Assembly: GCA_031273385.1 (NCBI GenBank)
Contig: JAISRY010000153.1
Location: 1-12,699, forward strand
DNA: 12,699 bases
DNA from: Tannerellaceae bacterium
GTDB taxonomy: Bacteria > Bacteroidota > Bacteroidia > Bacteroidales > Tannerellaceae
Reading direction: 5' to 3'
Shown here: piece by piece, positions 5,429 through 8,062 of the stretch
Layout: each line of letters opens with the position of its first letter
How positions within the stretch are numbered: position 1 is the first letter of the stretch
Notes under the pieces: generated by a model
Seen by the model: only the letters and a program-made list of their open reading frames with translations
Databases searched by the model: none
Told to the model about the DNA's origin: nothing
Translations under genes and position numbers: made by a program

Positions 5429-6006
5429 GTATGTTGGTTCAGGAATGTATATATTTTCAGGCATGCCCACGCATCCAATGCCGCATATTTCTTTTGCGAT
5501 TCGGATAATACGTCTGCTTCCCAATTCGTCAAACGCTGTCCTTTCGATATCTTTTTCCCGAACAGGATGGCGTATATCTTTTGCAGGCTGACATCTTTGA
5601 TGCCGAATTGCCCGACATAATTTTGCAGGTCCAGGAAGTTCGCCAGCTCGCCGTTGGTTCGTTTCCGTATGGCGCCGAAGTCGTCGCGCAGGGAGAGCCC
5701 TATTTTGAGTATGGCCTCGTTCGCCAGGAATTTCTCCAGCGATTCGGGCATACCGATACGGTTCAGCCTGAATAGGAAGCAGGCCTCTCCGGTCGAAATC
5801 TGCATGAGTGCGATCTTAAACCGCTGCCCTTTCTTAAAGCTGGGGCGCGTCTCGGTATCAAACCCCACCCAATCGTATGCGGCAAGATAGTCGATCGCCC
5901 TGTTCGCATCTTTTTTCGTGTCGATAATGATCGTCCGCCCCTTAAACTCTTCCACCGGAAGCTGGGCGATTTCCTCTTTCGTTATCGCATGTGTGTATTG
6001 TATCAT
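5425..6006 (-). CDS. DEDDy-family 3'-5' exonuclease (WRN/RNase D-like)
   Basis: This 193-aa single-domain nuclease of the DnaQ-like superfamily removes nucleotides from 3' ends with two metal ions. The four acidic residues and the tyrosine are visible: D50 and E52 in VGFDTETRPSF (Exo I), D108 or D109 in GLSLRDDF (Exo II), and Y174 with D178 in QKKYAALDAW (Exo III, the YxxxD form). NWEADVL just before Exo III resembles the WRN/RNase D group. No HRDC or helicase domain is present, so this is an exonuclease domain alone. Whether it acts on DNA or RNA is not shown. Its position between an rRNA methyltransferase and a DUF5063 protein leaves a role in RNA processing possible. It overlaps both neighbours by 4 nt (ATGA at each end), so the three genes are almost certainly co-translated. 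Confidence 0.88.
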   Translation of the reverse strand: MIQYTHAITKEEIAQLPVEEFKGRTIIIDTKKDANRAIDYLAAYDWVGFDTETRPSFKKGQRFKIALMQISTGEACFLFRLNRIGMPESLEKFLANEAILKIGLSLRDDFGAIRKRTNGELANFLDLQNYVGQFGIKDVSLQKIYAILFGKKISKGQRLTNWEADVLSESQKKYAALDAWACLKIYTFLNQHT

Positions 6007-6551
6007 TCTATGTCGTACGTTTCTAAATCATTCTCTTCGTTATAGCGTATGGCGTGAAGCGCTTTGAGTGCGTTCAACAGCCGCTGCCCCCAGTATTCGC
6101 GGAAATTGGTTTTGCAAACGGCCACGGCTTCGGTCGCCACCTTGTTGTTGTCATGGGAGAAAAGGCCAATGAAATTGCCGATATCCTGGTATACGTCGGC
6201 CAGGCTTTCGGAAATAAAGGCTGCGATGGGTGTGTCGCTGTAGGGCATATCGGGATGGAACGTCTCCAGAAAGGAGTCAAATTCGCCCAACAGGGCGGCG
6301 ATCCCGCTTCGCGCCGTTTCGTACATCTCTTCCGTTACGGTCTGCTCCGGCGCGGAGTCGTCGTCTTCCGTCTCCAGGCTGGGGAGAAGCGTCGCCTTAC
6401 TATATAATAAAGGTAGGACTTTGATGCTCCCGTCCACAAAAGCAAAAAGGCTCAACGCCGTGACCCTCTCGACGAGGGTGCAAAATTCCATTGCGACCGT
6501 AAGAAATCCCAATACATTGCTTTCGCTTATAGGATGCTTTTTCTGTTCCAT
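6003..6551 (-). CDS. DUF5063 domain protein, first gene of the exonuclease/rlmI operon
   Basis: An acidic, helical protein of 182 aa without signal peptide or membrane segment, so probably cytoplasmic. I recognise it as DUF5063 from the pattern LADVYQDIGNFIGLF and the C-terminal YWGQRLLNALKALHAI, together with its place before a WRN-like exonuclease, an arrangement familiar in Bacteroidota. No enzymatic motif is visible and its function is unknown. Coupling to the exonuclease (ATGA overlap at 6003-6006) suggests a shared process. The ATG at 6551 has no strong Shine-Dalgarno, only an A/G-rich leader (6552-6576). A TAnnTTTG box lies upstream at 6588-6595. Confidence 0.75.
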   Translation of the reverse strand: MEQKKHPISESNVLGFLTVAMEFCTLVERVTALSLFAFVDGSIKVLPLLYSKATLLPSLETEDDDSAPEQTVTEEMYETARSGIAALLGEFDSFLETFHPDMPYSDTPIAAFISESLADVYQDIGNFIGLFSHDNNKVATEAVAVCKTNFREYWGQRLLNALKALHAIRYNEENDLETYDIE

Positions 6552-6587
6552 TTTTTCCGTCTTTTCTTTCCATTAATTACCGGTGTA

Positions 6588-6595
6588 CAAAAGTA
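6588..6595 (-). promoter_or_regulatory. Candidate -7 box of the DUF5063-exonuclease-rlmI-mdh operon
   Basis: On the minus strand the sequence reads TACTTTTG, a TAnnTTTG match, 36 nt before the DUF5063 ATG. That would give a leader of roughly 30 nt. The -33 element is not clear; TTTC/TTCG-like sequence at 6607-6611 is too close. The 22-bp repeat array starts only about 46 bp upstream (6642), so anything bound there could affect this promoter. Confidence 0.5.
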
Positions 6596-6641
6596 GTAAT
6601 AAAAAGCGAAAGTTACTTTCTCCTTAAACAAATTACTGCCT

Positions 6642-6873
6642 TGCCGGTGAACAACTAACGGCCGGGTCGTTAATAACTCGTGACGGGCTCGGGAACAACT
6701 AATGGTCTCACAGCTGTGAACTAATGGTCTCACAGGAGTGAGGCGATCGCCTCACAGGAGTGAAACGATCGTCTCACAGGAGTGAGGCGATCACCTCACA
6801 GCTGTGAAACCATTAGTTGTTCCCGACCTAATCAAGAGTTGTTCCCGAGCCGGCCATTAGTTTGTACCGAGCC
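6642..6873. repeat. 22-bp-periodic, dyad-symmetric repeat array beside the recombinase gene
   Basis: This fills most of the gap 6552-6916. Five 12-bp dyads start exactly 22 bp apart: TCACAGCTGTGA at 6708 and 6796 (perfect palindromes), and TCACAGGAGTGA at 6730, 6752 and 6774. The 10-bp spacers are ACTAATGGTC (6698 and 6720), GGCGATCGCC (6742, palindrome), AACGATCGTC (6764) and GGCGATCACC (6786). The lattice goes on outward: left units at 6642, 6664 and 6686 carry variants of GAACAACTAATGG, and on the right AGTTGTTCCCGA variants begin at 6815, 6837 and 6859. The block is also one large inverted repeat centred at 6757.5. Arms 6689-6719 and 6796-6826 match at 30 of 31 positions, 6664-6683 pairs with 6832-6851 at 15 of 20, and 6642-6663 with 6852-6873 at 15 of 22. 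No ORF or T-tract is associated. Possible roles are recombinase binding, an operator, or a structured RNA. Confidence 0.9.
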
Positions 6874-6890
6874 GGTTGTTAGTCGTTCGT

Positions 6891-6922
6891 TTGTGGATCA
6901 ATAATGCGCTTGTGGATCAATA
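6891..6922. repeat. 13-bp direct repeat overlapping the recombinase stop codon
   Basis: TTGTGGATCAATA occurs exactly at 6891-6903 and again at 6910-6922, a 19-bp period. The second copy includes the last Tyr codon and the stop codon of the recombinase gene (minus strand). It lies just outside the 22-bp array. Candidate functions are a recombinase core site or a duplication left by insertion; neither is shown. Confidence 0.75.
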
Positions 6923-8062
6923 GATTTTCTCGAGGTCGCGGATGAGGGTCAAGTCCATAATCTTGCTGTATATCTCTGTTGTCCTTACGCTCTTGTGCCC
7001 GAGGAGTTTTTGTACGGTGGTGATATTCGCCCCGTTGTAGAGGAGGAGCGTCGCGTTGGTGTGGCGGGCGGTATGAAAAGAGACCTTTTTTTCGATATTG
7101 GCTTTCCGGCAAATGTGGAGTAGTTGCTTATTGACGTTTGAATTGGAATCCATAGAGGTGTTGAACAGGTTATTTTTGTAGCGGTTGAAAATAGCGATGG
7201 CCTTTCCCTCGAAGAGGAGGGAGAGGGGCAGGCGGACATGGATGTCCGTTTTGACGGAAGAGTAGACGAGCCACAACTTATCGTCGATAATGAGGAAGTT
7301 TTCTTTGGTGATCGTCGTGATGTCGGAGAAGCGTAGGCCGGTATAGCAGCTGAAGAGGAACATATCGAGACAGCGTTGGAGGTTTTTGTTCTTCCCCAGG
7401 TTGAGGTTCTCCAGCTTATAGAGCTCATCGGGCGTGAGATAGTTGCGATGACTCTCGACGTATTTGATTTTGTATTTCCTGAAAGGGTATTTCTCCAGCC
7501 TGAAAAGCTCTTTGTTGATGGCCAGGTTGACGTAGCGCTTGATGTGCTTCATGTGTTTGGCGATGGTGTTGCGGTGGTAGCGGCGTTTCAGGAGGTAACG
7601 TTCAAATTCGCAGAGGAAATTGTAATTGATGTCCTTAAAGGCGACGTTTTTCTTGAATATGGAGAGGATGTTTAATGTGGAGAGGTGATTTTTCATGGTC
7701 GACGGTCTTAAATGGCTCTGCTCTATCTCTTCCCTCATAAAAGAGGTAAAGGAGATGGGTGGAGGCTGGCTCCTTCCTTTCGGCTTGTCGGGGATGATGT
7801 TTTCCCCGTCTACGGTGAGAAAAAACTCCAACTGTCCGATGTTGGAGATAAACGCCTTGAGGTCTTGGTTGATGATTTCTTCTTTGGGGTAATCCTTTAC
7901 CGAGCGGTTTTTGTTGTCCCATTGGTTTGGCTTGAAGTACATCTTTATTACGGCATCATTTTTGTGTTTGTCCGGATTCGCTTCCGCTTGTATGAACATT
8001 TTACCTTCGACGTTTAACCGCTCTTTCTGCTTAATAGCTGAGCTGTTCATTTTCTTTTCCAT
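6917..8062 (-). CDS. Tyrosine recombinase / integrase (Bacteroidota type)
   Basis: A complete 381-aa site-specific recombinase. All six catalytic residues of the family are visible: R244 (CYTGLRFSD), K271 (SSVKTD), H330 and R333 (HTARH), H356 (LLGHKS) and the nucleophile Y365 (TEIYSKI). Residues 1-90 look like the arm-DNA-binding domain common in Bacteroidota integrases, about 100-185 is the SAM-like core-binding domain, and 205-375 is the catalytic domain. It therefore should cut and rejoin DNA at paired sites. The ATG at 8062 is used; a second Met (8050) is a possible start. No excisionase, relaxase, phage gene or transposon cargo lies nearby, so it is a solo recombinase. Its 3' end abuts the 22-bp dyad array, and its 5' end is 13 nt after the PD40 lipoprotein stop with no terminator between. 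The protein is richer in Lys, Asn and Ile than its Ala/Gly/Arg-rich neighbours, consistent with horizontal arrival. The target site is unknown. Confidence 0.93.
   Translation of the reverse strand: MEKKMNSSAIKQKERLNVEGKMFIQAEANPDKHKNDAVIKMYFKPNQWDNKNRSVKDYPKEEIINQDLKAFISNIGQLEFFLTVDGENIIPDKPKGRSQPPPISFTSFMREEIEQSHLRPSTMKNHLSTLNILSIFKKNVAFKDINYNFLCEFERYLLKRRYHRNTIAKHMKHIKRYVNLAINKELFRLEKYPFRKYKIKYVESHRNYLTPDELYKLENLNLGKNKNLQRCLDMFLFSCYTGLRFSDITTITKENFLIIDDKLWLVYSSVKTDIHVRLPLSLLFEGKAIAIFNRYKNNLFNTSMDSNSNVNKQLLHICRKANIEKKVSFHTARHTNATLLLYNGANITTVQKLLGHKSVRTTEIYSKIMDLTLIRDLEKIY

What the first reader, a model, noticed from the sequence alone, without database searches (positions are those of the whole stretch)
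6642..6873. Twelve-bp palindromes on an exact 22-bp lattice inside a 232-bp dyad
Five TCACAGnnGTGA-type 12-mers start at 6708, 6730, 6752, 6774 and 6796, exactly 22 bp apart, and the same register continues outward with a second motif family (GAACAACTAATGG and its reverse). The block is also symmetric about 6757.5, the centre of the middle 12-mer. A 22-bp period puts every unit on nearly the same face of the helix, as in iterons, centromere-like arrays or co-operative operators. The combined periodicity and dyad are far beyond chance and fit neither a terminator nor CRISPR. It lies beside a solo tyrosine recombinase and upstream of a housekeeping operon promoter.
Basis: partly seen in the sequence, partly recalled or inferred. 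Interest (0 to 1): 0.85.

Follow-up and report, generated by a model that had tools for sequence, protein, structure and literature searches.

The report
Histone-like protein's 22-bp address arrays
The odd 22-base lattice is one of about a dozen copies in this bacterium of a DNA array that also sits in front of the gene of a histone-like protein, and most related histone-like genes that were examined have a 22-base array of their own, which suggests sequence-specific bacterial chromatin.

Summary
In detail: period 22 scores 55 of 66 (30 shuffles: at most 35), and the dyad at 6757.5 pairs 84 of 116 (at most 50 elsewhere). The tie to the recombinase fails: the array lies on 12 contigs of this genome, and no other own-genome copy has a relative of it nearby.

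One copy lies just upstream of a 205-aa gene on contig C8: an HU/IHF-type domain (Pfam HU-HIG) plus a predicted winged helix. This is close to a rule in the gene family. Of 70 testable ~200-aa HU-HIG genes, 60 have a period-22 array within 450 bp upstream (47 of 54 clusters at 70% identity), against 0 of 107 other genes and 0 of 33 short HU-HIG or ordinary HU genes; but 3 of 4 HU-HIG genes without a winged helix seen have one too. The unit sequence differs from gene to gene; the 22-bp period does not. Array similarity follows the winged helix better than the HU domain.

Best reading: each protein binds its own array, controls its own promoter, and occupies dispersed copies such as this one. 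Binding is inferred. My ten paper searches listed no description.

The parts
6642..6873 (.). Whole array: 22-bp lattice, dyad about 6757.5; a dispersed (orphan) copy of the array family that precedes the HU-HIG gene on contig C8 of the same genome
6708..6719 (.). Core unit 1, TCACAGCTGTGA (perfect palindrome)
6730..6741 (.). Core unit 2, TCAC-AGGA-GTGA
6752..6763 (.). Core unit 3, TCAC-AGGA-GTGA, centre of the dyad
6774..6785 (.). Core unit 4, TCAC-AGGA-GTGA
6796..6807 (.). Core unit 5, TCACAGCTGTGA (perfect palindrome)
6649..6707 (+). Left outer arm: oriented units GAACAACTAACGG and GAACAACTAATGG in the same 22-bp register
   Evidence: left and right arm consensus agree over 13 own-genome loci (one, L157, placed by hand)
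6808..6873 (-). Right outer arm: the oriented units in reverse complement, three copies at 22 bp
6917..8062 (-). Neighbour, not a part: tyrosine recombinase, 381 aa (Phage_integrase, SAM_5, Arm-DNA-bind_5)
6003..6551 (-). Neighbour, not a part: DUF5063 gene, its start faces the array

Best explanation
The block is a dispersed copy of the cognate binding array of an HU-HIG + winged-helix protein (205 aa, contig C8:14983 of the same genome). In this protein family nearly every gene examined has an array of its own upstream: a few units, often palindromic, 22 bp apart, with oriented outer units in the better-studied cases. Proposed working: dimers bind each unit through two winged helices, which set the sequence; the HU bodies, on one face of the helix because of the 22-bp spacing, pack side by side and bend or wrap the DNA; over the gene's own array, which usually begins just downstream of the promoter, this represses or tunes its own transcription; over dispersed arrays such as this one it makes a local architectural complex (anchor, silencer or insulator) and titrates the protein. 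Shown: array anatomy, dispersal, gene-array adjacency, gene-specific units, covariation with the winged helix, predicted fold. Inferred: binding, filament, autoregulation, any effect of the orphan copies.
For: Adjacency: 60 of 70 testable ~200-aa HU-HIG genes reach lag-22 >= 36/66 within 450 bp upstream, 56 of 70 with 22 as the best of 30 lags, 47 of 54 clusters at 70% identity; of the ten misses L158, L162 and L164 have visible arrays with a 1-bp shift or only two units, and L265 has its array 1.7 kb upstream with a DDE transposase gene in between. Controls: 0 of 107 other genes, maximum 34 (from G003 and G006 loci only); 0 of 33 short HU-HIG or ordinary HU genes, maximum 35. Genus mates with few TCAC arrays have one at this gene: G004, two loci, one 57 bp before it; G005, its only locus, 0.9 kb before it. 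Units differ by gene (TCAC-N4-GTGA, TTCGCCAATTGGCGAA, TTCGACAGCTGTCGAA, GGACCTGGGTCC and others) while the period stays 22. Palindromy over 57 arrays: mean 0.66 against 0.53 with columns permuted; 24 of 57 exceed their own 95th percentile, about 3 expected. Mantel over 57 pairs: winged helix vs array r 0.30, 0 of 2000 permutations; given the HU domain r 0.18, P 0.001; HU given winged helix r 0.07, P 0.125. With 45 representatives below 70% identity: r 0.19, P 0.0005, partial 0.12, P 0.02; with 29 below 50%: r 0.18, P 0.007, partial 0.14, P 0.035. In G003 nine of 15 dispersed arrays have linkers nearest to the C18 gene's array and four to the C2 gene's. TAnnTTTG (the Bacteroidota -7 box, recalled) lies at the upstream edge in 42 of 57, against 4 of 57 in a control stretch. 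Model of the C8 protein: HU fold plus winged helix, pLDDT 90, pTM 0.59; profile and fold matches to HU and IHF (the first fold match is a ribosomal chain).
Against: No binding data. Ten of 70 genes miss the threshold; for six (L192, L201, L250, L251, L263-independent L163 with two units only 0.9 kb away, L268 with a doubtful start) I can show no array close by. L266 passes at exactly 36 with another lag higher. Three of four HU-HIG genes without a winged helix looked at (L167, L168, L179; not L183) have 22-bp-lag repeats upstream, so the lattice may go with the HU-HIG domain itself. Own-genome HU-HIG gene C110 has no array at threshold (32 of 66 in the 348 bp available). Only 24 of 57 arrays are palindromic beyond their own permutation limit. 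The Mantel signal is modest and rests largely on close pairs. Two G003 arrays fit none of three tested genes, and C3-gene linkers score close to C18's for some. Dispersed arrays have no uniform gene orientation, so a plain promoter role is unlikely for them.
Confidence: 0.72

Rival explanations
1. Selfish or MITE-like repeat: the array is mainly a mobile element, spread from HU-HIG gene units by a transposition machinery supplied in trans; the HU protein is its passenger or its tamer, and the orphan copy does nothing for the host.
For: Dispersed copies, homologous essentially over the lattice dyad in the nine own-genome loci compared. Some G027 copies carry, beside the array, a match to only part of the HU-gene region. 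Two sites with an array in G027 and G026 lack it in the relative G025. The Porphyromonas gingivalis BrickBuilt MITE holds 23-nt tandem repeats, always intergenic, 19 copies in one strain (PMC4596501; abstract and passages read).
Against: An array stays at one site in two genus mates (neighbour proteins 94 and 98% identical) with its half-sites intact while N4 and linkers differ widely; caution: these arrays were found by their half-sites. The association with one gene family, found without any motif, suggests a binding function anyway. Ends of transposon type or target duplications were not searched for.
Confidence: 0.2
2. RNA element: the array is transcribed as a 5' leader (or as a free RNA) and acts as a long or a serial hairpin.
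For: HU-proximal arrays mostly lie between a -7 box and the start codon. Mirrored variable positions match above between-array level in G006 (P 0.0085).
Against: The same test gives P 0.97, 0.09, 0.97 and 0.9995 in G000, G003, TD116 and P. oris. No Rfam match at gathering score; the best, mir-4856, has E 0.0004 but 31.6 of 70 bits. Dispersed copies have no fixed orientation to genes.
Confidence: 0.06
3. One reading: regulatory or attachment array of the adjacent tyrosine recombinase.
For: Adjacency in this window; two distant relatives within 0.8 kb in other loci.
Against: No other flanking frame at 103 array places matches it by blastp, and no other own-genome locus by tblastn.
Confidence: 0.02

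Closest known systems
HU-HIG domain proteins (Pfam PF18291, 'HU domain fused to wHTH, Ig, or Glycine-rich motif')
   Same: The protein beside the cognate array is a member by HMM (E 5e-35).
   Different: Pfam's one-line description names no DNA target; gene-specific 22-bp arrays are what is added here. A 2017 paper that I recall as the family's source, looked up by a DOI from memory, is not held, so I could not check it.
IHF / HU and their sites; BIMEs (recalled)
   Same: HU fold; architectural binding; dispersed intergenic repeats.
   Different: Winged helix added, many paralogues with different arrays, constant 22-bp period, array before the protein's own gene.
Iterons, parS-type arrays, multi-operator autorepressors (recalled)
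   Same: Helically phased repeats bound by the product of a neighbouring gene (here by inference).
   Different: Chromosomal, many copies, several specificities per genome, HU-type protein.
BrickBuilt MITE of Porphyromonas gingivalis (PMC4596501, abstract and passages)
   Same: Dispersed intergenic tandem repeats of similar unit length in a related bacterium; the paper also mentions 22-nt tandem repeats of unstated location in strain W83.
   Different: 23-nt unit AGAYCATARTATCCTCTCRTRTG, terminal repeats like those of IS5-family elements; no HU gene in the passages read.

Membership tests
HU-HIG cognate array (class described here) | Same unit and arms as an array upstream of an HU-HIG gene in the same genome | tested here: met
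   C8 array vs window: 83% over 145 bp on one strand, 78% over 162 bp on the other
HU-HIG cognate array (class described here) | 22-bp lattice with dyad | tested here: met
HU-HIG cognate array (class described here) | The protein binds the array | not testable with these tools
   inferred from adjacency and Mantel tests
Tyrosine recombinase site | Array accompanies the recombinase | tested here: not met
CRISPR array | Near-identical repeats separated by unrelated spacers | tested here: not met
   read from the sequence: linkers are themselves recurring parts of the 22-bp unit, and no spacer of usual length exists
MITE (BrickBuilt type) | Terminal inverted repeats shared with a resident IS, target duplication | not tested
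   homology ends about where the dyad ends; the two sites without array in G025 were compared by eye only
Iteron origin | Initiator gene beside the array, one array per replicon | tested here: not met
   12 contigs of one genome carry it; window neighbours are a recombinase and DUF5063
BIME / REP element | Associated REP transposase (RAYT) | not tested
   no search for it was made
Rfam RNA family | Match over the gathering score | tested here: not met
   window 6400-7100

The most novel reading that the evidence does not exclude
HU-HIG proteins are an addressable chromatin system: a family of histone-like paralogues (at least eleven of winged-helix size listed in genome G027), each with a private unit repeated on an invariant 22-bp lattice at its own promoter and, for most of those tested in G027, at dispersed chromosomal sites, so that one cell keeps several sequence-specific nucleoprotein compartments whose addresses diverge with their readers. 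In G027 the pooled array places are spaced more evenly than chance (40 places, gap CV 0.68 against 0.97, P 0.005), as sites of chromosome organisation might be; this rests on places picked by BLAST with eight arrays.
Probability: 0.35. Interest if true: 0.95.

Novelty: new variant of a known kind. Interest (0 to 1): 0.85.

Why it matters
HU and IHF are the textbook bacterial histone-like proteins, with little specificity or a single one (recalled). Here an HU-type family in Parabacteroides and its relatives seems to have acquired interchangeable DNA readers and private, phased binding arrays. If right, it gives some dozens of natural protein-address pairs for learning what these winged helices read, a possible bacterial counterpart of locus-specific chromatin, and an explanation for one class of dispersed intergenic repeats. 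It also predicts a DNA target for many genes now named only 'HU family DNA-binding protein'.

Tried and rejected
Recombinase link: rejected. RNA family and hairpin covariation: no match over cut-off, no general covariation. Relatives of the protein in IMG/VR: 77 pattern matches, none confirmed. Crp/Fnr-type operator: polarity TCAC...GTGA is opposite to the recalled GTGA...TCAC sites; not pursued. Second own-genome paralogue (C198): its motif recurs at C198 itself and, at one mismatch or less, at six other contigs, two overlapping hits at C136 only; control 1; so wide dispersal is not shown for that paralogue. Even spacing in G027: suggestive only. Palindromy as a rule for every array: not borne out one by one (24 of 57). 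Literature: ten counted full-text searches; no listed title was about HU-HIG arrays; one search listed 15 of 102 papers; the library lacks most subscription journals.

Rows dropped before counts: one search left out L216 (no frame found) and L227, L228, L243-L245 (not put in); in it L223, L237 and L239 gave doubtful starts. One search looked at 21 of the loci, not at L169-L171, L178, L180-L182, L184, L185. The 40 genes are the first by E-value with frames of 190-225 aa, without those already held and those with a stop in frame. One search took 72 genes and dropped L159 and L204 (too little upstream sequence). One search had beforehand left out L250, L251, L265, L266, L268, L192, L201, L204, L159 and L163, so its 58 of 61 is no unbiased rate. 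In one search nine of 78 places lack a flank at a contig end. The arrays were found by their half-sites, so half-site conservation there is partly by selection; the HU-gene counts use the period alone.

Full report
WHAT IS THERE. The block at 6642-6873 is as described. Lag 22 is the strongest period of the window (55 of 66; shuffles up to 35) and 6757.5 its strongest dyad (84 of 116; up to 50 elsewhere). Units are TCAC-N4-GTGA plus a 10-bp linker; on both sides oriented units with AACTAAT-like cores follow in the same register.

IT IS A DISPERSED FAMILY. BLAST of the block against its own genome (2.3 Mb, 251 contigs, 70% complete) gives 28 matches on 12 contigs; a motif pair on the lattice gives 22 forward and 14 reverse matches, 0 and 0 for the reversed control. 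Homology between the nine own-genome loci compared is essentially confined to the lattice dyad, apart from unrelated neighbouring repeats. TCAC-N4-GTGA pairs at 22 bp occur in 12 of 59 sampled genomes of the same family, and in 1 of 148 of a phylum sample, that one being the window's own. Named genomes with TCACAGnnGTGA pairs include Phocaeicola oris, Bacteroides sp. 214, Parabacteroides and Tannerellaceae genomes. G003, of the window's genus, has a contig of the same length and array as Parabacteroides sp. PH5-46, which NCBI places in Tannerellaceae.

WHAT IS CONSERVED. In core units the half-sites carry about 1.5-2 bits per base; the N4 is nearly free in G003 and G006 and partly free in P. 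oris. The arrays were found by these half-sites, so their conservation is partly by selection; the freedom of N4 is not. Left and right arms share one consensus in reverse complement, clearest in G000 and TD116, fading over several further units. At one site shared by G006 and the genome behind L107 (flanking proteins 98 and 94% identical) both have an array with intact TCAC/GTGA lattice while N4 and linkers differ widely. A mirror-covariation test, which a hairpin should pass, was positive in one of five genomes (G006, P 0.0085; G003 0.09; G000, TD116, P. oris 0.97-0.9995).

THE GENE THAT GOES WITH IT. In three genomes one array lies directly upstream of orthologues of one protein: Pfam HU-HIG, with a C-terminal part predicted as a winged helix (pLDDT 90, pTM 0.59). 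In the genus it lies beside the array also in G004 (57 bp) and, 0.9 kb away, in G005, which have only two loci and one locus of the motif. Upstream sequences of further homologues then showed arrays with other units on the same 22-bp period. I took more PF18291 genes from a 40-genome family sample, those given as loci and 40 more with frames of 190-225 aa.

COUNTS. ~200-aa class: 60 of 70 testable genes reach 36 of 66 at lag 22 within 450 bp upstream; 22 is the best of 30 lags in 56 of 70; by clusters at 70% identity 47 of 54. Other genes: 0 of 107, mean 24, maximum 34 (G003 and G006 loci only). Short HU-HIG and ordinary HU: 0 of 33, maximum 35. Against a strict winged-helix rule: 3 of 4 genes of other build have 22-lag repeats (L167 acidic tail, L168 and L179; L168 bears the Ig-like DUF4469). 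The 70 genes are all from the window's family as the tool groups it; five stronger HU-HIG hits outside it (L217-L221) are short proteins without arrays. In G003 all seven genes of the class that I examined have arrays with different units. Palindromy: mean 0.66 against 0.53 for column permutations that keep the period; 24 of 57 arrays exceed their own 95th percentile, about 3 expected; so palindromic on the whole, not provably each.

SPECIFICITY. Over 57 gene-array pairs array-unit similarity rises with winged-helix identity (mean 0.42 below 25%, 0.44-0.46 at 25-50%, 0.57 at 50-70%, 0.64 above 70%; the last two classes hold 25 of 1596 pairs); Mantel r 0.30, 0 of 2000 permutations. Given the HU domain the winged helix still counts (r 0.18, P 0.001); given the winged helix the HU domain does not (r 0.07, P 0.125). 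The order holds for 45 representatives below 70% identity (0.19, P 0.0005; partial 0.12, P 0.02) and 29 below 50% (0.18, P 0.007; partial 0.14, P 0.035). In G003, of 15 dispersed arrays nine are nearest in their linkers to the C18 gene's array, four to the C2 gene's, two to none; three gene arrays were compared and the C3 one scores close to C18's for some.

POSITION. In the 57 pairs the best array window begins 93-269 bp before the start codon, median 162; TAnnTTTG sits at its upstream edge in 42 of 57 against 4 of 57 in a control stretch. So the array usually overlaps the start of transcription or the leader, the place for an autoregulatory block. Dispersed copies show no such rule: G003 5 tandem, 4 convergent, 5 divergent; G006 3, 2, 6; G000 4, 0, 3; P. 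oris 5, 7, 1 (genes called by a simple frame rule, places with both flanks).

DISPERSAL IN A ONE-CONTIG GENOME. Eight HU-proximal arrays of G027 (4.46 Mb) joined as a query gave 80 matches at about 40 places; by my reading of the query coordinates seven of the eight families have at least one copy away from their gene (for one of the seven the flanks were not read). The flanks of 25 places were read; ten have an HU-HIG neighbour. Some copies of one family carry a match to only part of the HU gene region; four sit beside frames of the same DDE transposase, one of these between an array and an HU-HIG gene (L295). Two sites with an array in G027 and G026 have none in G025: gain or loss.

HOW IT MOST LIKELY WORKS. 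See best explanation. Shown: anatomy, dispersal, adjacency, gene-specific units, covariation, predicted fold. Inferred: binding, side-by-side packing on one DNA face, autoregulation, architectural role of orphans. How orphans spread is open; a MITE-like route is the main rival and may be true at the same time.

KNOWN OR NEW. The protein family is known; ten counted full-text searches listed no title on its arrays, in a library without most subscription journals. BrickBuilt (PMC4596501; abstract and passages) is the nearest described repeat that I found and differs in unit and ends. PMC5771137 was seen by passages only.

Noticed in passing
L167, L168, L179 (upstream of HU-HIG genes of G017 and G016): HU-HIG genes of other build (acidic tail; Ig-like DUF4469 in L168) also have 22-bp-lag repeats upstream (57, 51 and 36 of 66), for example AATTCCTATAAGAATTTTATAA repeated; the lattice may belong to the HU-HIG domain rather than to the winged helix.
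   Followed up: partly
L299, L301 (G027): Array plus a match to part of an HU-HIG gene region elsewhere in the chromosome: perhaps degenerate array-and-gene units.
   Followed up: partly
L295, L298, L300, L307 (G027): Frames of one DDE transposase lie beside four arrays; in L295 it separates an array from an HU-HIG gene.
   Followed up: partly
L309 (G027): One array lies beside a reading frame that looks like the start of a Cas9 protein (recalled resemblance, not run against a library).
   Followed up: no
window 6888-6922: TTTGTGGATCAATA occurs twice, 19 bp apart, between the array and the end of the recombinase gene.
   Followed up: no
L148, L150; L147, L153: Other dispersed repeats lie near own-genome arrays: an element with GGATTGCTTCACTGCGTTCGCAATGACG and CTTAAG-rich repeats.
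   Followed up: no
Phocaeicola oris loci, e.g. L069, L084, L090, L099, L101: Its arrays have outer palindromes such as TCATACGTATGA on the same lattice and 7 of 13 lie between convergent genes; its matching HU-HIG gene was not sought.
   Followed up: no
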